Positions 9,401 through 45,026 of a DNA stretch of 64,000 nucleotides are shown here, one piece after another; the first letter of the stretch is position 1, and every line of letters starts with the position of its first letter. Where the stretch lies: the NCBI RefSeq assembly GCF_964204865.1, contig NC_135253.1, positions 21,550,001-21,614,000 of the forward strand, given 5' to 3'. The notes under the pieces were generated by a model. It was not told the DNA's origin. It searched no databases and saw only the letters and a list, made by a program, of their open reading frames with translations. This stretch comes from Styela clava. Lineage: Eukaryota; Chordata; Ascidiacea; Stolidobranchia; Styelidae. Made by a program: the position numbers and the translations under genes.

Positions 9401-10036
9401 GTATTCCAATAATTTTTAGACATTTCGCATGTTCAACCAACCTACATCTTTAACAAGCATGACAGACATACCGGTAAGCCTCCCTGTGGCAGCCTTGTTA
9501 GTTCTAATACGAGAAAAGTGTTTTTATGAAATTCCATATAGCACCGATCATTTTCATTGCTTGTATTTTTCAATGTATTCATTTGATGGAAATAAAAACA
9601 TTTTATTCCAGGGTTCAAGTTCAATAAAGTTGGTAGAAGAGGACAATCAGGCCCTCGAGTGAAATCAGAACTCAAACGCCCTGATGAAATATTGAAAGAA
9701 AGAAAAGAGAGAGAACGTAAAATGCAACGTGGACGAGGTGGTGGATCGTCAAGGGGACGGGGAGGGCCTTCTCGGGGTGGTGGAAGCTCGAGGGGCCGTG
9801 GAGGGCCTTCTTGGGGTGGTGGAAGCTCAAGGGGCCATGGAGGGCCTTCTCGGGGTGGTGGACGCTCAAGGGGCCGTGGGGGGCCTTCTCGGGGTGGACC
9901 CTCGTTTGGGAATAAAAAGGGTTTTGGTGCATCGAGAGGACAACAATTTGGACATGGTAGACCTTCTAGAGGAGGTTTTAGAGGTGGCTCACGGGGGCGT
10001 GGTGGAGGAGGAGGTCGTGGTGGAAGGAGGAGATGA
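441..10036 (+). CDS. DDX54: DDX54 / Dbp10 ATP-dependent RNA helicase, 3' ten exons (partial)
   Basis: Nucleolar DEAD-box RNA helicase of the Dbp10 family (large-subunit ribosome assembly; transcriptional corepressor in vertebrates). Exons by splice sites and phase: 441-538, 1564-1637, 3306-3448, 4607-4685, 5522-5582, 6180-6276, 6835-6919, 8133-8192, 8953-9121, 9612-10036, all with GT-AG introns. They encode about 429 residues up to TGA at 10034-10036. The helicase core lies upstream of the window. Recognised parts: the post-helicase segment with SYKPN..TIFEI (exons 2-3), and the DBP10CT domain with HYINYKPKDH, GAVLDLMGDD, VWDRKKKKFV and a KIRTESG-like motif (exons 6-9), all matching DDX54 closely. 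The final exon holds the conserved RPDEILKERK helix and then a long RGG/RGGPS-rich tail that vertebrate DDX54 lacks. Introns are filled with MITEs, hAT elements and SINE pieces. Confidence 0.93.
620..760 (+). repeat. degenerate tRNA-SINE body fragment
   Basis: Diverged copy of the SINE body seen at 18313-18632 (variants of GGTGGTTCACGTAACTGCTGGTC, here mutated, followed by the TATGATTAAG.CGCCTTATCGG..TTTCCTCTCC segment). It lies in a DDX54 intron. Confidence 0.5.
1206..1467 (+). repeat. tRNA-derived SINE copy, 5' truncated
   Basis: Carries the family body (GGTGGTTCACGTAACTGCTG, then GGCTAACTAATCCCATAC) and the 3' end GGGATAAATATGTAAATCC. The tRNA-like head is mostly missing. Inserted in a DDX54 intron. 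Confidence 0.8.
1853..2137. mobile_element. hAT-type non-autonomous element
   Basis: Begins CAGGGGTGACGAACCT and ends with the imperfect inverse (GTTTGTCACCTATG). Flanking 8-mers GGTTAGAC and GTCTAGAC match at 6 of 8 positions, as in an aged hAT target duplication. A second CAGGGCTACTCAACT terminus follows immediately at 2146, so another element is inserted alongside. Confidence 0.6.
3541..4150 (+). repeat. 'GATCGGTAAGTATG' repeat family copy, split by an insertion
   Basis: A repeat seen at least seven times in the window starts with CTTGATCGGTAAGTATGTTG and contains CTCCAAATTTTGCATGT, TCTCGGACCAGAAGCCTATT and ATTAATTAGTGATGGGAC. This copy is interrupted between 3569 and 3856 by a hAT-type element and resumes after it. 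I see no open reading frame in the family; its class is unknown. Confidence 0.8.
3577..3848. mobile_element. hAT MITE with exact 8-bp target duplication
   Basis: Termini CAGGGGTGCGCAAACTGC and (inverse) AAGGTTGCACACCCCTG. The 8-bp direct repeat GCCTAAAT lies at 3569-3576 and 3849-3856. CAGGGGT termini with 8-bp duplications are the hAT signature. It sits inside another repeat copy, so it is the younger insertion. Confidence 0.88.
4410..4519. mobile_element. ~110-bp hairpin MITE (family M1)
   Basis: Near-perfect palindrome: GAAGTATGTGCACCAAGATG at the left end reappears inverted at the right, with a GCGCACAACCTGAAC / GTTCAGGTTGTGCGC core. Flanks CTAGTTTT (4402-4409) and CTGGTTTT (4520-4527) are an 8-bp target duplication with one mismatch. 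Confidence 0.85.
4689..4990 (+). repeat. 'GATCGGTAAGTATG' repeat family copy
   Basis: Contains ATCGATCTCGATCGGTAGGT, the CGAAAGCGAGGTTGAATC segment, TCTCGGACCAGAAGCCTAT and GTGATGGGACATGCAATGTC. It directly follows a DDX54 exon donor site, so it lies at the 5' end of an intron. Confidence 0.75.
5164..5413. mobile_element. hAT-like element, TAGGGGCGTAGCCAG termini
   Basis: Left end TAGGGGCGTAGCCAG, right end CTGGCTATGCCGCTG (imperfect inverse). Exact 8-bp target duplication CCATCACT at 5156-5163 and 5414-5421. The interior has G- and C-runs and no coding sequence. Confidence 0.88.
5820..6055. mobile_element. ~236-bp hairpin MITE (family M2)
   Basis: Inverted ends GGGCTCCCGAAGTATGCG... and ...CGCTTACTTCGGGAGCACC, with CCAAGATGGCGGACATCGGA near the left end. 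Exact 8-bp target duplication GGCTTTTC at 5812-5819 and 6056-6063. Internal TTAGGGTTAGGCCATAAT recurs inverted. Confidence 0.9.
6656..6764. mobile_element. hairpin MITE (family M1)
   Basis: Ends ACTCCTGAAGTATGCGCACC and inverse; a short palindromic element in a DDX54 intron. Both flanks end in TAGTTTT (ATAGTTTT left, CTAGTTTT right), fitting the TAGTTTT-like target seen for other copies. Confidence 0.82.
7050..7457. mobile_element. hAT-type element, CAGTGGTTCCCAAACTT termini
   Basis: Begins CAGTGGTTCCCAAACTTAAC and ends AAAGTTTGGGAACCACTG, a classic hAT inverted-repeat pair, with GGGTCCGC near both ends. I could not match 8-bp flanks, so the insertion is old or its edges are damaged. Confidence 0.7.
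7680..8062. mobile_element. hAT-type element, CAGTGGTTCCCAAACTT termini
   Basis: Left end CAGTGGTTCCCAAACTTGCT, right end AGTTTGGGAACCGCTG, with GGGACCCACTA / GTGGGTTGCGACCCA subterminal motifs. The same subfamily is present at 45556-46353. No clean target duplication was seen. Confidence 0.72.
9181..9305 (+). repeat. tRNA-SINE body fragment
   Basis: Contains CTAATCCCATACCCGACATG, GGACTGGTAAT and GAGAGGCCGTGGTTCG from the SINE body, without head or clean 3' end. It lies in the last DDX54 intron. Confidence 0.75.
9755..9910 (+). repeat. coding minisatellite, 39-bp unit, RGG/PSRGGG repeats
   Basis: Four in-frame 39-bp units begin at 9755, 9794, 9833 and 9872, each encoding 13 residues of the form GRGGPSRGGGSSR with single changes (W, H or R variants). 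They form the DDX54 C-terminal RGG tail. The period is an exact multiple of three, so unit gain or loss keeps the frame. Confidence 0.9.
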
Positions 10037-11192
10037 TTTAATATTCGAGACTCCTTCCACATTTAATACCAGAAAAAAATATTGGTTGCTCAAAAATTGC
10101 TCCGACTTCGTAATGCAATTTAATGTTGCGAATCTAACATGTTATTCTGAAACTTATATATGAAGTAAGGACCACGGCAAAAATAAGCAATATTACATGG
10201 TATGAAATAAATATCCTCATTCCACAAGAATAAATGTATTAAAAATATGCATTTGGTTTCTTGTACATTCACTTAGTTGGGTGGAGTTATTGCATTTCAA
10301 GATTGCTGTTACTTTGGTTACATTCTCAAAACGTGTGTTAAGTGTGATAGCGGAGGCCAGGGTTATGCAGTTGGAGTTTGCCTGTTTTTATTTGATATTG
10401 GGTCTGCATTTTGCTCTCTCGTGGCGCAGCTTAAGTATAAAATGTCTTCGTCAGATGGGATGAACAATGTAAAAATATTTATAATATGAGAGAATAATTA
10501 TTTGTCAATCAATGAAACGACCCATAACAACAATACCAATATATACATTGGGCTAATAGCTAGAACAACGTTTTTTTTTTCGGTATAAACCAGGGAGAGA
10601 TACGGCCATGTCATCAAGTTCCGCTCCCCAGTTTCGCGCCGATGAGTTTACAGTAGATACGAGATGCTCCTGAAGTATGTAAACCAAGATGGCGGGCATC
10701 GGAACGTAGTATGTGTACCAGGTTAGAGTTTGGCCATGATTTCAATTTTCCTTATTTTAGTTTCATTACGAGTTCGGGGACTAACCAAGTGACTCCCGTA
10801 GTATTTTTACCTGAAATTATGGCCTAACCTGGTAAGCTACGTACTGGTGTCCGCCATCTTGATTCATATACTTCGGGAGCACGCAATACGACAGTGTTCA
10901 CAATTCTTGGAACAAAATTGCCGACCCTTAATTTTAATAACATCATGTAATATTTAAATGTATTTCACATTGTATTATCTGCGCCCGATCAAGATCGGTG
11001 CTATTATCCGGTGGTTGTTATTTCATACCTATCTATTGTGTTATTATTACAAAATTTTCTCACTTTGTTGCAACTTGGTATTTTCTGGAAAGAAATACGA
11101 AAGTCGCACTTATTCGTGAATTATCGATTTGATAAAATTCGGTTCTGAGATCTTTCTAAGTTTTGCTACGGTGCTTTGCGTGCGTTTTTGAA
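10037..11192. other. DDX54 3' end and intergenic region
   Basis: Two AATAAA hexamers at 10206-10211 and 10229-10234 are likely polyadenylation signals of DDX54. Beyond them I see only an M2 hairpin MITE (10667-10882) and AT-rich sequence up to the CRHBP start. No clear TATA box was recognised. Confidence 0.6.
10667..10882. mobile_element. hairpin MITE (family M2)
   Basis: Ends ATGCTCCTGAAGTATGTAAA and inverse CATATACTTCGGGAGCAC, with AAGATGGCGGGCATCGGAAC near the left and GTCCGCCATCTTGATTC near the right. The internal part is shared with the copies at 5820 and 60302. Confidence 0.85.
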
Positions 11193-34849: not shown

Positions 34850-36470
34850 GAAATATATTCAGTTCTATGACTTATTTTTTCATACCGACAGAAAATATAA
34901 CAAATAATTTTTTCTTATTTCTCAAGGCTGCAAGGCCAACATGCTAAATCTGTAGCCACCATGTCCATGCAGCCATAAATCTGTAGACAGATCAACACAT
35001 AATTAAATTCATAAAACTTAGATTTATAGATATTCTAAAAAATGAAATAAACATATTAACAGAGATAGTGTATCTTTGCGGTTCACAGACTTTGGGACTC
35101 TTCTTACATGTCTTATGTTGGAAAGATATTCAAGCATGGTTGTAAACATTGCTTTGTTTGAGTGTGTTAGTATAAGTATAAGTTTATTTCGACTCCATAA
35201 TCAGCAATAGACGATAAAAAAATAGATAAAAACAAAAGTAAAAGTAACTGATTATAGAATCGGGAAAGCGAACAAAACCTCGAGTAAGGTTTGAAACGTA
35301 CAGATTTTAGATGGAAAGGTATTGATAAAAGAAGTAGTACGTGTTCGCTCACCCAAAAGTAAAAAAAAAACTAATTAAGGCACGCACGCACGCACACACA
35401 CACATATACAATCATCGAGACATGATACTGTCGGAAGCGAAAAAAGCGAGACTTGAAAGTAAAAAGGAAGGAAAATATACAAACAAATAAAAATGAATAA
35501 ATTCTTTTGCCACACCAAATTAATAATTTTTTGAGGATGCCAAATTTGTCAGTTTTCTGTTGTGTATTCAAAAATTAGTTAATCAACCGATTGAATTGTC
35601 ATTATGCCTTCCGAGGAGCTTTAGTTTAGGTGCAATAATAAAAAATTAGACCCCAAAAAGCTGCGATAAATTACTGGATTAGATAAAAATTAGCAAGACT
35701 ATTACTGTATTACTATATTAGTAGCCAAACTGTAAGTAAGCGGTTAAATATTTAAAATTGAATTCCTTTTAATGAAAAATACCATAAATAAAATATTATT
35801 ATCAAAAATTAATACCAACAGTACCATATTAATAGGATATACATGGTTATACATCCATGGAAGAATTCGTATTTAACACCAACCATTTATTCCATATTCC
35901 TCATTCATACGATTACAAAACGATACAATAGGCCTACATACGATCCCCCGGGATAAATATGTAAATCCTTCCATCCTACAATATTCAGATATTATTATTT
36001 TTAAGATAAGCATGTAAAAACAAGATTTCCCAATTATTATTCATCTTCTAATTACATACTAATATATAAACTTTTGTATACTATATATCTGTATACGGTA
36101 TATACATAAGATAACAGGCTTTATACACCGTTACATAATAAACTTAGCCCTCTTGCTGTTTTGTAAATTTAGGTACGGTAATTTTCTAAATTGCTTTATT
36201 TTATTTCTACATTTTGAAGTGTGACATTTTTAAAAATTATTGCATTTCGATGCAACTAAATAGGCCTTTAATAATAACTAAAACTGATGATTTTGAACAA
36301 GTAAACCAGTCGGTAAGCGCCAACTTTTTATAACACTCTCCAAATGAATATCAAAAGTATAGTATAAGTTTCCCGATCTTTTCGTCGCCCTTGTCTGTGT
36401 TATTTTGTGTTCGGTGTTGTCAAGTTGTAGACGAAAGACCAAAATAAAATTGTATTGTATTTATTTCGAC
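34850..36470. other. AT-rich intergenic region
   Basis: No gene recognised. Contains a short simple repeat (GCACGCACGCACACACACAC near 35382-35404), a SINE 3'-end fragment at 35944-35972 (CCCGGGATAAATATGTAAAT), and a fragment at 35118-35206 related to the repeats at 27.4 kb and to the flank of the Foldback-like element (TTTATTTCGACTCCATAATC occurs at both sites). Confidence 0.55.
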
Positions 36471-36714
36471 TCCATAATCGCCACTGTCATATGAGCAAAA
36501 TGCTAGCAAAATCCCGCAGCAAAATATACGATGTCATAAAAACGTGTTTCCACTTTGCGAAATATTTTTAATTATTAACCACAGAGATGTAGAATTGTAA
36601 ATTGAACGTTATTATGTAGCATTCAATCACACAAAGCATTTAGGATCAAGGGAGAAGTACAACAAACTATATTTATTAAAATAAAATAACGTAATATTTA
36701 TGAAAAAATGAAAA

Positions 36715-38095
36715 GTTTGTTAAATTGACACTAAATTTGAACAAGATCTGCCTTTGGGGCTCAAAAAATATTTTGGGTATGGATTTACAACTCAGACATC
36801 TTTCCAATCAAATAAAGAATATGACAAAAAAATTGATCAGTTTTCTAACAAAATAATTTTAATACAACGCAATAACGTAAATTTCTTAAAAATTCGAAAA
36901 ATCGTTAAATTGACCCAAAATTTGACCAAGATCTGCCTTTGGGGCTCAAAAAATATTATGAGTATGGATATCTGAATTCATCATCTTTCCAATGAAAAAA
37001 GAAATTGGAAAAAACTCGATCAGATTTCTAACAAAATACTTTTAATATAACGCAATAACGTAAATTTCTTAGAAATTCGAAAAATCGTTAAATTGACCCA
37101 AAATTTGAACAAGATCTTTCTTTGGGGCTTAAAAAATATTATGAGTATGAATATCTGAATTCATCTTCTTTCCAATGAAATAAAGAAATTGAAAAAAACG
37201 CGATCAGTTTTCTAACAAAATACTTTTAAAATACCGCAATAACGTAAATTTCTTAGAAATTCGAAAAATCGTTAAATTGACCCAAAATTTGAACAAGATC
37301 TGCCTTTGGGGCTTAAAAAATATTTTGAGTATGGATATTTGAATTCATCATCTTTCCAACGGAATAAAGAAATTGTAAAAAAACTCCATCAGTTTTCTAA
37401 CAAAATACTTTTAATATAGCGAAATAACGTAAATTTCTTAGAAATTCGAAAAATCGTTAAATTGACCCAAAATTTGAACAAGATCTGTCTTTGGGGCTTA
37501 AAAAATATTATGAGTATGGATATATGAATTCATCATCTTTCCAATGAAATAAAGAAATTGAAAAAAACGCGATCAGTTTTCTAACAAAATACTTTTAAAA
37601 TACGCAATAACGTAAATTTCTTAGAAATTCGAAAAATCGTTAAATTGACCCAAAATTTGAACAAGATCTGCCTTTGGGGCTTAAAAAATATTATGAGTAT
37701 GGATATCTGAATTCATCATCTTTCCAATGGAATAAAAAAATTGAAAAAAAACTCGATCAGTTTTCTAACAAAATACTTTTAATATAACGCAATAACGTAA
37801 ATTTCTTAGAAATTCGAAAAATCGTTAAATTGATCCAAAATTTGAACAAGATCTGCCTTTGGGGCTTAAAAAAATATATTGAGTATGCATATTTGAATTC
37901 ATCATCTTTCCAGTGGAATAAAGAAATTGGAAAAAAACTCGATCAGTTTTCTAACAAAATACTTTTAATATAGCGCAATAACGTAAATTTCTTAGAAATT
38001 CGAAAAATCGTTAAATTGACCCAAAATTTGAACAAGATCTGCCTTTGGGGCTTAAAAAATATTTATTAGAGTATGGATATCTGATTTCATCATCT
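36715..38095 (+). repeat. left arm array, about 8 units of ~183 bp
   Basis: Tandem units each carry GAACAAGATCTGCCTTTGGG (variants at about 36747, 36930, 37111, 37298, 37484, 37668, 37850, 38037), GATCAGTTTTCTAACAAAAT and GCAATAACGTAAATTTCTTA. The outermost unit is the most diverged. No unit carries a long open frame. Confidence 0.93.
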
Positions 38096-38974
38096 TTCCC
38101 CACAACCCCACATGTTGAGGAACAATCTCTCCATTATGTTTGATTGCGTTGAAATAATATGTTTATATACTGGATAATGTCTTCGCTTTTTCATGGTTAA
38201 ATTATATTTAAAATTTAAATAGTCACAGATAATTTACAATTCGATTTACTTTCATTTCAGGTGAGACAAAACAAGAATTTTGCAGCATTGCATTATAAGC
38301 TGAACTGGTGATTTTATTTTTGCAAAATGGCTGCGCTCAAAAATTGTTACGTTGTTCCGGTATACATGCAACATGAACGAAAAAGAAGTACAAATAATTG
38401 ATTAGTAGAGATGAACAGTATCCGAAGAAATAACCCATGTGCTTCCGTAACAGTGAAATAGTTGCGGCGTTCCACTCCACGGCAATTTACATTCGAATCC
38501 GAATTGAAAAAAAAATTGACTCCGACTCTAGACTCGGGGTTGCAAACAATTTTGACCCCGACTACAGCTCCGAACTCTAGGAAAATCAAATTTTGATAAC
38601 AAAATTTTTAGCGCATGTTAGCTTTCATTAATTAATTAATTGTTAGAAAACGCTTAGGAAGCTTGATGCTTTTTTGACTTCCATTATCACCATTGAATGT
38701 CTGAAATTATGACTTTTACGATCGAATTCAAAATCTTACAGTTTAATATTAAGCTTCCAGATCCAGTGAGCGAATTCCTACTATACATCCCGTAAGTATT
38801 GAAACACGCGAATCAATTGTATGCTACAAATTGGCACATATATTTAACGAAATACTTATGAATATTGGCAAAAAAATGTAACCTAATAAAAAAAATCCAC
38901 AAAAATTACGTCAACTTCTTTAGTTTTCAAAGATAAATATAAATTGAACCAAAACGTTTATTTGTTTTCACTAC
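38096..38974. other. spacer between left array and protease stop
   Basis: AT-rich unique DNA of the transposon, downstream of the protease stop codon; probably the 3' non-coding part of the transposon gene. No further coding sequence seen. Confidence 0.5.
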
Positions 38975-41383
38975 TTAGTCAATTATCTCTCTATCTCTAC
39001 AAAATACAGTATTGAATATGGCATGTACTTTCGGATGTAGTTTTTTAGATCCAAGACAAATTGCATACATCATCCAACTTTGAAATATGTCTGGGGAGAC
39101 AAGGCCAAGGTCATTTTTGAAGTCCGAACAAATCATGTCCACTGCCATACAGACACATACGCCACAGCTTGTCACATCCGTTTGCCTAATAAAGCATTTT
39201 TGAAGAATGGAAATGTTTCCTTCATACTTTCCGAGATTCAATAAAAACGGGAGAAGATATGAGGCAATATTCTCTTTCGTGGTGTCTATTTTACTTTCAG
39301 CCGAGTCTATAATGAACGCGGTAAGCATAGGAATAGAAATCAAAATCAAATGATGGTTGTAGAGCAGAGGAAAGAAAAGATTCTCTCTCAAAATCCCAGG
39401 TTGGTTCGGATTTTCAAGAGCTGCCCTGATAAGTTCTTTATTTCTAATCGGTTTTCCTGCTAAAATATGCTGTGTTAGAAGACAATCAACATATCCAAAA
39501 CGAATGACGTCGCCTGTAATACTATTACATACTTCAATTGTTGAACACATATATGCCTCTACTATACTTTCGTTCAGCCATCCTGCTTGATGCGATCTAT
39601 CCAACAGACATTTCCCAGCCAAATCCAAAACTTTAGATGGCGCAGGACACAGAGTATAAATATCTAGCCATCGAACAATTTTATCATTTTCCGTCACAGC
39701 AGTAACACTCAGCATTGAATCAGTTGGAATACTACCCCACACATCTCTAGAAAACTGTATATGAAGTTCAATATTCAACTGATGTTCTGAGAAGAATATC
39801 GGATGTCGCACATTATGAGTCAATTCAAGCGTTTCTGAAGATACAGTCGAATTGGTTTCAATATGCGCGATGCATTGTTTCTGGTGATTTTTCCCGTAAT
39901 CGAAATGAATTTTATGTGAGGCGGTACCTGTAGTATAAAATCCTTTATCTCGTGTTTTTCTTATTTTAAACTTTTCTTTGACAAGCAGAGATTCTGTCTG
40001 AATTTTATTTGTATTTATTTTGTATCCTCGATGTAGGACACAATCCGCGTGCATTTTTTGTGTTACTTTGACTTGTTTTCGATACATCCAAACGAATTCG
40101 TCGAGATGACTCAGGCGTTTTCCGTGTAAATGGTTTCGTTTCAATTGCCCAAAATGTTTTCAATTATGCCTTGCGTTTTATTATTCTGGTGAGCCGATTG
40201 TACGTTAGAGTTTTTTATTGTTTGATACTTTTTGGCAAATTTTTCGTAAAATTCTCTGTCTACGGTCGTTTTTTTCACATGGCGTGATAAATCCCCCAAC
40301 ATCAAGCTAGATGTTGCCGCTAATTTACTCATAATTACTTTCAAAAAAATGTCGCAAAATTTATCCGAGTAGTATGGATTTTGACAGGGGAATGAAATTT
40401 CATCTATGTGACTTTTATAGATCTCCGAGTGTCGAAAGTTGTCCAAAATAATACGATATCTGTTGTAAAAGGGTGAGAGAGGGTCTATACTGTCATTAAC
40501 TGTGTCAAAAATCCCTTGTTCACGGTATTCGTGTTCATCAGTGTAGAATCTACTGACATAATTTCTTATCCTCAATTTTTCAAAATGTATCTCGACGAGA
40601 GGGGACAATTGTTTTAATGCTGTGACGATAAAAAAAACTATTAGCTATTCCGTCAAGTTCTTCGATGCTTTCTGATGCAAAAAACCTTTCGCCCCAATTC
40701 ATGACGACGACTCTATGACTTTTTCTATAATATTTAACACACAGCAATTTGGCCGCATGCATTGCATGGCTGAGGCAATTGTGCAATATAGGCATGTCGT
40801 CGTGTGGCGATGCCGCGCCTGTAACAATACGATAACATCTTTTGTAGTACGCTATCCGTGTTTCATGGCAAAAAGCCCGTAATATGGCAATCCACATTGC
40901 TGCTGATCCGTCAATTATAATCAAAATGGGCTGATGGTGAGAGCCACAATCGTGCTTAGAAGAATCTACAATGAAACGCTGCAAAAAATAACAAATATTT
41001 GCTGCTGTGTGATCATTTGTAACAGTTCTCGCCACTGGCAATGGCAAGTGTCCTTGATAAGGGTTCCTCACTACCAGAGAGTAGATATAGAAATCTTTTT
41101 GTCCATCTCTTGCTTTTATAATGATGCCAGTAGCATCAAAATATAAAATATCGCGCTTAGTAATGAGCTTGTAAATTTCCAATTGTCCGTCAGTGTAGAG
41201 GATAAAGCCGGGAGGGTCGTTTGAGAAGCAGCGAATGAAGTGCTCGTTATTACTTTTAAATATAGTTTGCATAATACCAATATTCTGCAACCATGATTCA
41301 GTGAATCTGTATTCTTTATTTTCTGACTTAATGTAAAAGTATTTTGTTAGAAAACTGATCGAGTTTTTTTCCAATTTCTTCAT
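38975..41383 (-). pseudogene. DDE transposase fused to Ulp1/C48 cysteine protease, frameshifted
   Basis: Three overlapping minus-strand frames read as one protein of about 800 residues: 40580-41383, 40141-40608 and 38975-40144. First frame: LYFDATG (Asp 83), IIIDGSAAMW (Asp 158) and a C-x2-H pair at 203/206 (NCLSHAMHA), fitting a Mutator-type DDE core; the Glu may be among E232-E242. Third frame: a segment resembling the post-catalytic ENHFGQLKR-type region, then a Ulp1 domain with WLN at 189-191, His 265, Asp 280, Gln 321 and Cys 327 (QTDVTSCGVC), the complete C48 set. The first break can be explained by a T8 run near 40625; the second lies near 40150 by AAAA/TTTT runs. Either may be decay or an assembly error. 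The frames are not separate genes: each overlap is only a few codons and similarity runs through. Confidence 0.8.
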
Positions 41384-41384
41384 T

Positions 41385-43960
41385 TCACTTGAAATGATGA
41401 TGAATTCAGATATCCATACTCATAATATTTTTTGAGCCCCAAAGGCAGATCTTGTTCAAATTTTGGGTCAATTTAACGATTTTTCGAATTTCTGAGAAAT
41501 TTACGTTATTGCGTTATATTAAGAGTATTTTGTTAGAAAACTGATCGAGTTTTTTTCCAATTTCTTTATTTCATTGAAATTATGATGAATTCAGATATCC
41601 ATACTCATAATATTTTTTAAGCCCCAAAGGCAGATCTTGTTCAAATTTTGGGTCAATTTAACGATTTTTCGAATTTCTAAGAAATTTACGTTATTGCGTT
41701 ATATTAAAAGTATTTTGTTAGAAAACTGATCGAGTTTTTTTCCCAATTTCTTTATTTCATTGGAAAGATGATGGATTCAGATATCCATACTCTTAATATA
41801 TTTTGAGCCCCAAAGGCAGATCTTGTTCAAATTTTAGGTCAATTTAACGATTTTTCGAATTTTTAAGAAATTCACGTTATTGCGTTATATTAAAAGTATT
41901 TTGTTAAAAAACTGATCGAGTTTTTTCCAATTTCTTTATTTTATTGAAAAGATGATGAATTCAGATATCCATACCCACAATATTTTTTCAGCGCCAAAAG
42001 CAGATATTGTTCAAATTTTGGGTCAATTCAACGATTTTTCGAATTTCTAAGAAATTTTCGTTATTGCGTTATATTAAAAGTATTTTGTTAGAAAACTGAT
42101 CGAGTTTTTTCCAATTTCTTTATTTCATTGAAAAGATGATGAATTCAGATACCTATACTCCTAATATTTTTTGAGCCCCAAAGGCAGATCTTGTTCAAAT
42201 TTTGGGTCAATTTAACGAGTTTTCAAATTTCTAAGAAATTTACGTTATTGCATTATATTAAAAGTATTTTGTTAGAAAACTGATCGAGTTTTTTCCAATT
42301 TCTTTATTTCATTGAAAAGATGATGAATTCAGATACCTATACTCCTAATATTTTTTGAGCCCCAAAGGCAGATCTTTTTCAAATTTTGGGTCAATTTAAC
42401 GAGTTTTCAAATTTCTAAGAAATTTACGTTATTGCGTTATATTAAAAGTATTTTGTTAGAAAACTGATCGAGTTTTTTTTCCAATTTCTTTATTTCATTG
42501 AAATGATGATGAATTCAGATATCCATACTCACAATATTTTTTGAGCGCCAAAAGCAGATATTGTTCGAATTTTGGGTCAATTTAACGATTTTTCGAATTT
42601 CTAAGAAATTTTCGTTATTGCGTTATATTAAAAGTATTTTGTTAGAAAACTGATCGAGTTTTTTCCAATTTCTTTATTTCATTGGAAAGATGATGAATTC
42701 AGATATCTATACTCATAATGTTTTTTGAGCCCCAAAGGCAGATCTTGTTCAAATTTTGGGTCAATTTAACGATTTTTCGAATTTCTAAGAAATTTACGTT
42801 ATTGCGTTATATTAAAAGTATTTTGTTAGAAAACTGATCGAGTTTTTTTCCAATTTCTTTATTTCATTGGAAAGATGATGAATTCAGATATCTATACTCA
42901 TAATACTTTTTGAGCCCCAAAGGCAGATCTTTTTCAAATTTTGGGTCAATTTAACGAGTTTTCAAATTTCTAAGAAATTTACGTTATTGCGTTATATTAA
43001 AAGTATTTTGTTAGAAAACTGATCGAGTTTTTTTTCCAATTTCTTTATTTCATTGAAATGATGATGAATTCAGATATCCATACTCACAATATTTTTTGAG
43101 CGCCAAAAGCAGATATTGTTCGAATTTTGGGTCAATTTAACGATTTTTCGAATTTCTAAGAAATTTACGTTATTGCGGTATATTAAAAGTATTTTGTTAG
43201 AAAACTGATCGAGTTTTTTTCCAATTTCTTTATTTCATTGGAAAGATGATGAATTCAGATATCTATACTCATAATATTTTTTGAGCCCCAAAGGCAGATC
43301 TTTTTCAAATTTTGGGTCAATTTAACGAGTTTTCAAATTTCTAAGAAATTTACGTTATTGCGTTATATTAAAAGTATTTTGTTAGAAAACTGATCGAGTT
43401 TTTTTCCAATTTCTTTATTTCATTGAAATGATGATGGATTCAGATATCCATACTCTTGATATATTTTGAGCCCCAAAGACAGATCTGGTTCAAATTTTGG
43501 GTCAATTTAACGATTTATCGAATTTCTAAGAAATTTACGTTATATTAAAAGTATTTTGTTAGAAAACTGATCGAGTTTTTTTCCAATTTCTTTATTTCAT
43601 TGAAATGATGATGAATTCAGATATCCATACTCATAATATTTTTTGAGCCCCAAAGGCGGATCTTGTTCAAATTTTGGGTTAATTTAACGATTTTTCTGAT
43701 TTTTAGGAAATTTACGTTATTGCGTTGAATTTTGTTAGAAAACTGATTGTGTTTTTCCCCAATTTGTTTATTTGATTGGAAAGATGATTACTTCATATAT
43801 CCATACTCAAAATATTTTTTGAGTTCCAAAGGCAGATCTTGTTCAAATTTTGGGTGAATTTAACGATTTTTGGCATTTTTGTGAAATTTATATTATTGCG
43901 TTGTAATTAATGTGTTTTGTTAGAAAACTGATCGAGTTTTGTCCCGGTCTCTTGTTTGAA
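41385..43960 (-). repeat. right arm array, about 14 units of ~183 bp
   Basis: Same unit as the left arm on the opposite strand (CCCCAAAGGCAGATCTTGTT and variants at about 41437, 41622, 41808, 41993, 42176, 42359, 42545, 42732, 42915, 43101, 43286, 43471, 43648, 43824). Variant units recur every third position (see findings). The innermost unit runs into the start of the transposase frame. Confidence 0.93.
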
Positions 43961-44269
43961 TTTTTCGACAAAAATTAATTTTTTTGAGAACTTTATTGTT
44001 ATTCACGTATATGTTTTCGACATGTATACATTATTTTATTTCAATACTTACATAATATCATCATATCAAAGTATACAATCTTAATTTATTCACATGAGAC
44101 TGGATACTGGTATTGTATTTATACACGAAAATGATAGACCGCATTAAATTAATTTTTAATCCTAAATTTTATAATGAAACACTTTTTATGACTTCGTGTT
44201 TTCGAGCAGCAAGATTTTGCTAGCATTTTGCTAGCTTGACAGAGGTCCATAATCCTGTAATCATAACAA

Positions 44270-44372
44270 GGAAATTTTTCTGGGGTCAAGGGTCGGGGAA
44301 AGATCCATGGCGAGATGAAGGAAGATTTTTTTATGGACCTTTCTCCGACCTTTGACCCCCGAAAAAATTCTT
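44270..44372. repeat. imperfect hairpin
   Basis: GGTCAAGGGTCGGGGAAAGA with TCCAT on the left faces ATGGACC and TTTCTCCGACCTTTGACC on the right, around a roughly 25-bp loop. Part of an interspersed repeat rather than of the Foldback-like element. Confidence 0.7.
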
Positions 44373-45026
44373 CCTATACTTTACCATTGCAACATTTTCA
44401 GGGCTATTTTAAGAGCGCTTTTGCGAGTTGGCGCCTGTAAAATGGGGTATGTGTTGCAAACCATCATTATGATTCATCGCATACAACAATCTGTTTTTTA
44501 AAAGTACCGGTAAAGAATTTTAGCCTGGTCTATCACAGCTATTTCTACACTAATTTTTTTTCACTGCAATTAAATTAAAACTCCTAGGAAGACAGAAAGA
44601 TCATTGAATTATCTGATTTATATTTAAGTTTCTGAAACACAACTGAAAACTGACGAATAGAGTTCAAAAACGCGAAAACGAGATAATGTTTACGACCACG
44701 CTTGAAAATCTGTCTGAGTGAGAAAAGTGTCTGAGTGGAAGCGAAAAGGGAGCATTGTTACGTCATTTTTTGCATCTTGCTGATTGGCCAATGTCACGAT
44801 GTAAACAAGGAAGTCGATGCTCGGGGAGAGGTCCATTGGATACTAACGAAACAGCAAAATAAATATATTTAGTGCCAAAGTTCCCTCATCTATTCTAACT
44901 GAACACAACGCTTTCTATAATAAAAAGCAAGAAGTTCCAATGATATGAACTTTGGGGGTATATTGAATCATTTACTGTCAGTAATAACCGTATGTTAGTC
45001 GTTGGTAATAACGAAATTCATATTAG

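What the first reader, a model, noticed from the sequence alone, without database searches (positions are those of the whole stretch)
36471..44254. Foldback-like Mutator element with repeat-array arms in an animal genome
Seen: 9-bp direct repeats TCCATAATC, short inverted ends (CC[A/T]CTGTCA...AGCAAAATGC), then arrays of one ~183-bp unit in opposite orientation, and a central transposase-protease gene. Known: Drosophila FB elements have arms of tandem subrepeats, and NOF carries a Mutator-like transposase with 9-bp duplications. Inference: this is an independent or distantly related Foldback-type lineage whose arms use a far longer unit and whose gene also carries a protease.
Basis: partly seen in the sequence, partly recalled or inferred. 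Interest (0 to 1): 0.9.

Follow-up and report, generated by a model that had tools for sequence, protein, structure and literature searches.

The report
Foldback-type transposon with satellite arms
A worn-out copy of a jumping gene whose two ends are long, mirror-image stacks of one repeated unit; this body plan is already known from beetle, fly and nematode elements, but the copies in this genome show unusually clearly how such stacks grow, shrink and get rewritten.

Summary
Window 36480-44246 is one DNA-transposon copy: short inverted ends, two inverted arrays of a ~185-bp unit (7.7 and 14.2 copies) and a broken central gene. The genome holds more copies with the same ends; nine core copies measure 3.9-36 kb. 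Two details change. The target duplication is 8 bp, not 9: the ninth base belongs to the right end. The window's gene is a truncated, frameshifted remnant; two intact copies elsewhere encode 1264 aa with a PHD finger, a transposase-like core and a C-terminal Ulp1/C48-type protease with H-D-Q-C conserved. The architecture is not new: Rehavkus-1_TC of Tribolium (9.5 kb, 164-bp units in inverted termini), Tetris and Tm1 share it, and Ulp1 domains are published in animal Mutator transposons. I call it Rehavkus-like, a new member of a known kind; no Rehavkus sequence was on hand, and the core matches no Pfam MULE model. Arm behaviour looks new: left and right arms carry distinct unit lineages shared across copies; two sister copies with 99.8% identical centres differ by 10 kb, mostly in the right arm, and their right arms carry left-type units. 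Array-free ~210-260-bp derivatives also moved. TTAGGG telomeres argue against an arthropod host.

The parts
36472..36479 (.). left target-site duplication CCATAATC (8 bp)
   Evidence: identical to 44247-44254
36480..44246 (+). whole element, 7767 bp
   Evidence: same ends in other copies
36480..36551 (+). left terminal inverted repeat (71 bp aligned, 79% to right end)
36685..38099 (+). left arm: array of ~185-bp unit, 7.7 copies
38975..40144 (-). gene remnant, third piece (389 aa), holds the protease
38975..39751 (-). Ulp1/C48-type protease domain (left boundary approximate), catalytic H-D-Q-C letters present
   Evidence: domain identified through relatives
40141..40608 (-). gene remnant, second piece (155 aa)
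40580..41333 (-). gene remnant, first piece: DATG and DGS acidic motifs of the transposase-like core; N-terminal ~476 codons incl. PHD finger missing
41334..43940 (-). right arm: inverted array of the same unit, 14.2 copies; begins directly at the gene breakpoint
44176..44246 (-). right terminal inverted repeat, outer end AGAGGT
44247..44254 (.). right target-site duplication CCATAATC

Best explanation
It is a degenerate, internally deleted copy of a cut-and-paste DNA transposon of Foldback/Rehavkus type. Intact relatives encode one protein with a PHD finger (probably chromatin binding), a transposase-like core with two conserved Asp motifs and a C-terminal Ulp1-type protease. The protein recognises the outer ~100 bp of each end, cuts the element out and inserts it with an 8-bp duplication. 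The arrays inside the ends are not needed for movement; they grow, shrink and invert like small satellites, and sometimes one arm is rewritten from the other, probably through hairpin or inverted-repeat recombination. Shown: anatomy, copy number, duplications, PHD and protease domains, array-free derivatives, arm lineages. Inferred: catalysis, end recognition, protease role (removal of SUMO or ubiquitin-like tags from host factors or from the transposase), and the hairpin step.
For: Same ends genome-wide with 8-bp duplications (11 of 22 exact, 16 of 22 at 6 or more; cross-pair control 1 of 462). Intact 1264-aa frame in two copies. PHD finger E 5.5e-7, above its cut-off. C48 protease: Pfam C48 match in 5 of the 7 aligned sequences, best 3e-9; profile match to SENP2 at 4.2e-9; H, D, Q and C invariant in 10 of 10 aligned sequences, which include two of this family and three near-identical ones. 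DATG, DGS and C.SH motifs in 6 of 6. C2_27 and C6_15 centres differ at 11 of 5304 bases, have different duplications and lengths of 21.2 and 11.2 kb. Six array-free copies of ~212-259 bp were read, three of them with exact 8-bp duplications.
Against: No convincing match of the transposase core in Pfam or in a PDB profile search. This family's own protease sequence has no C48 match by itself, only a weak ElaD/SseL-like one (E 0.15 and 0.065); the assignment leans on its relatives. 6 of 22 end pairs show fewer than 6 matching bases at 8 bp; one of these has 9 bp. Structure predictions unusable (pLDDT 33 and 37). No empty site found. The only flank of a distant relative I could read (2.5 kb, one side) shows no array. 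The third acidic residue was not placed across relatives, because most sequences end before it.
Confidence: 0.86

Rival explanations
1. The arrays are an independent satellite DNA, and the element merely inserted beside or captured it.
For: Unit arrays look like satellites (tandem, ~185 bp). The whole-genome unit search gave 495 matches and listed only the best of them, so arrays outside elements are not excluded.
Against: In 9 of 9 core copies arrays of opposite orientation lie between a left and a right end (the inner part of some right arms was not fetched); every row that one search lists lies inside a copy already known; arm-specific unit lineages are shared across copies.
Confidence: 0.06
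2. It is a member of the Phantom clade of Mutator elements like Tm1.
For: Tm1 combines composite inverted arms, 9-bp duplications and a Phantom-like transposase (PMC3169594 abstract and first part of the discussion).
Against: Phantom transposases carry an N-terminal FLYWCH finger and a MULE domain; the intact protein here shows a PHD finger and no FLYWCH, SWIM or MULE match listed at E up to 10.
Confidence: 0.06
3. The two sister copies with different arm lengths are an assembly artefact (collapsed or expanded arrays), and arm rewriting is spurious.
For: Tandem arrays are prone to misassembly (recalled); one right arm contains a ~650-bp inverted block.
Against: Left/right unit lineages hold over 9 copies: the observed labelling is matched, among 512 arm swaps, only by its mirror image; left-type units are interspersed through the right arm of C2_27, not in one block.
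Confidence: 0.2

Closest known systems
Rehavkus-1_TC, Tribolium castaneum (PMC10218199 passages; Rehavkus group in PMC6446971, section 8 and passages)
   Same: 9.5-kb element; [quoted passage not shown]
   Different: group listed with 9-bp duplications (here 8) and with arthropod and annelid hosts; unit ~185 bp and arms of many kb here; no sequence comparison possible
Tetris / DAIBAM, Drosophila virilis group (PMC4079207 passages and section 10)
   Same: ~220-bp tandem units inside inverted ends, 8-10 bp duplications, a relative (DAIBAM) probably derived by deletion
   Different: no coding capacity; a left/right difference of units was not mentioned in what I read
Tm1, root-knot nematodes (PMC3169594 abstract and first part of the discussion)
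   Same: Foldback-like arms with a transposase gene and short derivatives
   Different: ~14-bp units, 9-bp duplications, Phantom-type FLYWCH transposase
Drosophila FB4/NOF (recalled; FB4 passage in PMC8277862)
   Same: inverted arms of subrepeats (recalled); long duplications
   Different: 9-10 bp duplications and ~700-bp inverted ends; shorter subrepeats (recalled); protease not known to me
Mutator transposons with Ulp1 domain in hydra, lancelet and plants (PMC2836005 passages)
   Same: transposon protein with Ulp1-type protease, PHD in some
   Different: no array arms mentioned in the passages seen

Membership tests
Foldback-type DNA transposon (structural class) | inverted ends containing tandem subrepeats | tested here: met
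Foldback-type DNA transposon (structural class) | dispersed copies with target duplications | tested here: met
Rehavkus group | PHD finger in the transposase protein | tested here: met
   (intact copy; missing in the window copy)
Rehavkus group | minisatellite at the termini | tested here: met
   feature
Rehavkus group | 9-bp target duplication | tested here: not met
   8 bp exact in 11 of 22 pairs; one pair with 9
Rehavkus group | sequence kinship with a named Rehavkus transposase | not testable with these tools
   no Repbase sequences held
Mutator-like (Pfam MULE PF10551) | MULE domain match | tested here: not met
   0 of 5 core sequences, not in the intact protein; 0 of 82 genome hits overlap the lineage, compared by eye
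Mutator-like superfamily | DDE triad, 8-11 bp duplication | tested here: inconclusive
   two Asp motifs and 8-bp duplication; third Glu not assigned
Peptidase C48 (Ulp1/SENP) | profile match and H-D-Q-C | tested here: met
   as a lineage; this family's sequence alone does not match Pfam C48
Phantom | FLYWCH zinc finger and MULE domain | tested here: not met

The most novel reading that the evidence does not exclude
The two arms of one transposon are separate satellite lineages that are inherited as 'left' and 'right' through transposition, expand by many kilobases between sister insertions, and are occasionally overwritten across the inverted repeat, so that transposition itself is a satellite-making and satellite-converting machine. 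The protease-transposase protein and the nucleosome-sized units may be linked in this.
Probability: 0.35. Interest if true: 0.6.

Novelty: new member of a known kind. Interest (0 to 1): 0.42.

Why it matters
Foldback-type elements are a proposed source of satellite DNA (Tetris abstract passage) and of inversions (Galileo abstract). Here copies in one genome, from array-free forms of little over 200 bp to a 36-kb form, with two almost identical centres and very different arms, let the rate and direction of arm growth and arm-to-arm conversion be measured directly. TTAGGG telomeres suggest a host outside arthropods, which may widen the known range of Rehavkus-like elements; one survey limits Rehavkus to insects and annelids.

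Tried and rejected
Pfam on the three window pieces: only sub-cut-off matches. Relatives in viral contigs: 4 pattern stretches, none a relative. Pfam and PDB profile of the transposase core: nothing convincing. AlphaFold2 without alignment on the window's 389-aa and 267-aa pieces: pLDDT 33 and 37, so no fold search was done. Empty site by joined flanks of the window copy: of 41 matches, two are its own flanks and none of the other 39 crosses the junction (40 of 591 candidates scored). Array in the 3' flank of one distant relative: none within 2.5 kb, inconclusive. Independent-satellite reading and Phantom membership: judged unlikely (see rivals). Rows dropped: the protease profile A1 used 7 of the 10 sequences, leaving out the window copy and two near-duplicates; the core alignment A2 used 5 of the 6. 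The unit comparison used 397 full-length units from 14 regions; the left/right test used 9 of these regions, dropping five with one arm only or strong decay; right arms of C2_27, C2_19, C19_9 and C2_4 were only partly fetched (C2_4: 4 usable units).
Full report
What is there. The window interval 36480-44246 is one element of 7767 bp between two copies of CCATAATC. Its ends are inverted over 71 bp at 79% identity. After 205 bp of left end comes an array of a ~185-bp unit (36685-38099, 7.7 copies), then 3.2 kb of centre, then the same unit in opposite orientation (41334-43940, 14.2 copies), then 306 bp of right end. The most common spacing between units over the copies read is 185 bp, then 184 and 186.

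It is a repeated mobile family. In the 376.6-Mb genome the left end gave 42 matches (40 of 146 candidates scored) and the right end 36; each list includes the window itself and two matches to the opposite end. I paired 22 sets of ends. Eight-base duplications are identical in 11 of 22 and match at 6 or more in 16 of 22; among 462 cross-pairings one reaches 6. Six pairs show less than 6, one of which has a clean 9-bp repeat. Nine core copies measure 3.9, 7.8, 8.2, 8.8, 11.2, 21.2, 21.8, 32.1 and 36.1 kb. Of eight shorter copies read, six of about 212-259 bp hold only ~105 bp of left and ~80-105 bp of right end and no array match, while C5_5 and C3_15 hold array pieces. Of the six, C3_23, C19_18 and C5_21 have exact 8-bp duplications, C17_6 has 7 of 8, and C16_12 and C2_6 have 5 and 3 of 8; in C2_6 the right end was not located. 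So the arrays seem not to be needed for movement.

The gene. In the window it is split into three frames and lacks about 476 N-terminal codons; it meets the right array at 41334, with about 1.9 kb or more missing relative to C2_27. Two copies, C2:27274451-27278314 and C6:15749633-15753496, hold one open frame of 1288 codons, 1264 from the first Met, with identical 1264-aa proteins. The protein has a PHD finger at 148-180 (Pfam E 5.5e-7, score 29.9 over a cut-off of 24; best solved relative DIDO1), two conserved acidic motifs and a C.SH motif in 6 of 6 core sequences (D543 in DATG, D618 in DGS, C663), and a C-terminal protease. The protease is supported by Pfam C48 in 5 of 7 aligned sequences (best 3e-9), a profile match to SENP2 at 4.2e-9 with the catalytic letters aligned, and H, D, Q and C in 10 of 10 sequences at identities down to 26% to this family. 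This family's own sequence is not among the five; alone it gives only a weak ElaD/SseL-like match. The pattern over such divergence argues that the protease is used. The genome holds many longer relatives with open frames up to 1950 codons.

Is it a Mutator? The core matches neither Pfam MULE nor any PDB chain, and the 82 MULE-domain hits found in the genome lie elsewhere (compared by eye). Repbase moved Rehavkus into MuDR on weak but significant similarity (PMC4455052 passage), so a missing Pfam match does not exclude it. I treat the superfamily as likely and unproven.

How the arms behave. I aligned 397 full-length units. Left-arm units resemble left arms of other copies in 9 of 9 core copies, and right-arm units resemble right arms in 6 of 9; among 512 arm swaps only the mirror image of the true labelling does as well. 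Six alignment columns separate the types at the threshold used. The exceptions are informative: C2_27 and C6_15, whose centres differ at 11 of 5304 bases, carry left-type alleles through much of their right arms (left share 0.87 and 0.69), while C2_4 (0.54) had only 4 right units to judge. These two insertions have different duplications, so at least one moved since their common ancestor, yet they differ by 10 kb, mostly in the right arm (58 unit hits in the part fetched against 12; left arms 20 and 19). C2_27 also has a short inverted block inside its right arm. Against strong homogenisation: for 172 of 397 units the nearest unit lies only in another element and for 165 only in the same arm; a nearest unit in the other arm of the same element is rare (11 of 397, alone or tied). 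The simplest account is unequal exchange or slippage within an arm plus rare copying across the inverted arms; the hairpin step is inferred, and misassembly is the main rival.

Host. The window carries open frames matching CRF-binding protein, dynactin p62 and Slx4, so the host is an animal. TTAGGG runs give 3093 and 5245 overlapping matches by strand, the listed ones near the tip of contig C1, while TTAGG and TCAGG runs gave none. From recalled telomere types that argues against a typical arthropod; a spiralian or other non-ecdysozoan animal is my guess.

Comparison. [quoted passage not shown] passages of PMC10218199) is the closest body plan, and the Rehavkus group is listed with a PHD finger, minisatellite and 9-bp duplications (section 8 and passages of PMC6446971). 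Tetris shows ~220-bp units and 8-10 bp duplications (section 10 of PMC4079207). Ulp1 in Mutator transposons of hydra and lancelet is in PMC2836005 (passages). A 2026 survey of arthropod MULEs reports elements of 1.4-10 kb and inverted ends up to 1193 bp (section 10 of PMC13359780); the 21-36-kb copies here are larger than that. A search for papers holding Ulp1, MULE, transposon and PHD finger together found none; it covers only the open library. The Phantom paper was not held. In Galileo, transposase binding sites lie within the arm repeats (abstract of PMC3688188), an alternative role for the arrays that the array-free copies here do not exclude.

Verdict. Real, well-built observation; ordinary in kind, informative in detail. 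I call it Rehavkus-like rather than Rehavkus, because the duplication length differs and no Rehavkus sequence could be compared.

Noticed in passing
whole genome, listed matches at contig C1 37-942: TTAGGG telomere runs, no TTAGG or TCAGG runs: host unlikely to be a typical arthropod.
   Followed up: partly
window 9737-9897: 39-bp tandem unit, 4.1 copies, inside an open frame at 9696-10163 (+); no Pfam match.
   Followed up: no
window 36369-36461: The left flank of the insertion belongs to another dispersed repeat: 39 further matches at 76-94% identity.
   Followed up: no
window 44275-44400: Imperfect palindrome just right of the insertion, seen by eye; possibly another small inverted-repeat element.
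   Followed up: no
G000 C9:8.05M, C1:9.18M, C18:14.24M, C8:13.76M, C14:20.10M and others: A large set of related genes with open frames of 1500-1950 codons, protease-bearing where read; their ends and arms are mostly unread.
   Followed up: partly
G000 C10:15980920, 15985677, 15990431: Three left-end matches of equal score about 4.8 kb apart, suggesting a tandem array of copies.
   Followed up: no
L010/L011 (C2:27282475-27283125): A ~650-bp block of four units lies inverted inside a right arm.
   Followed up: partly
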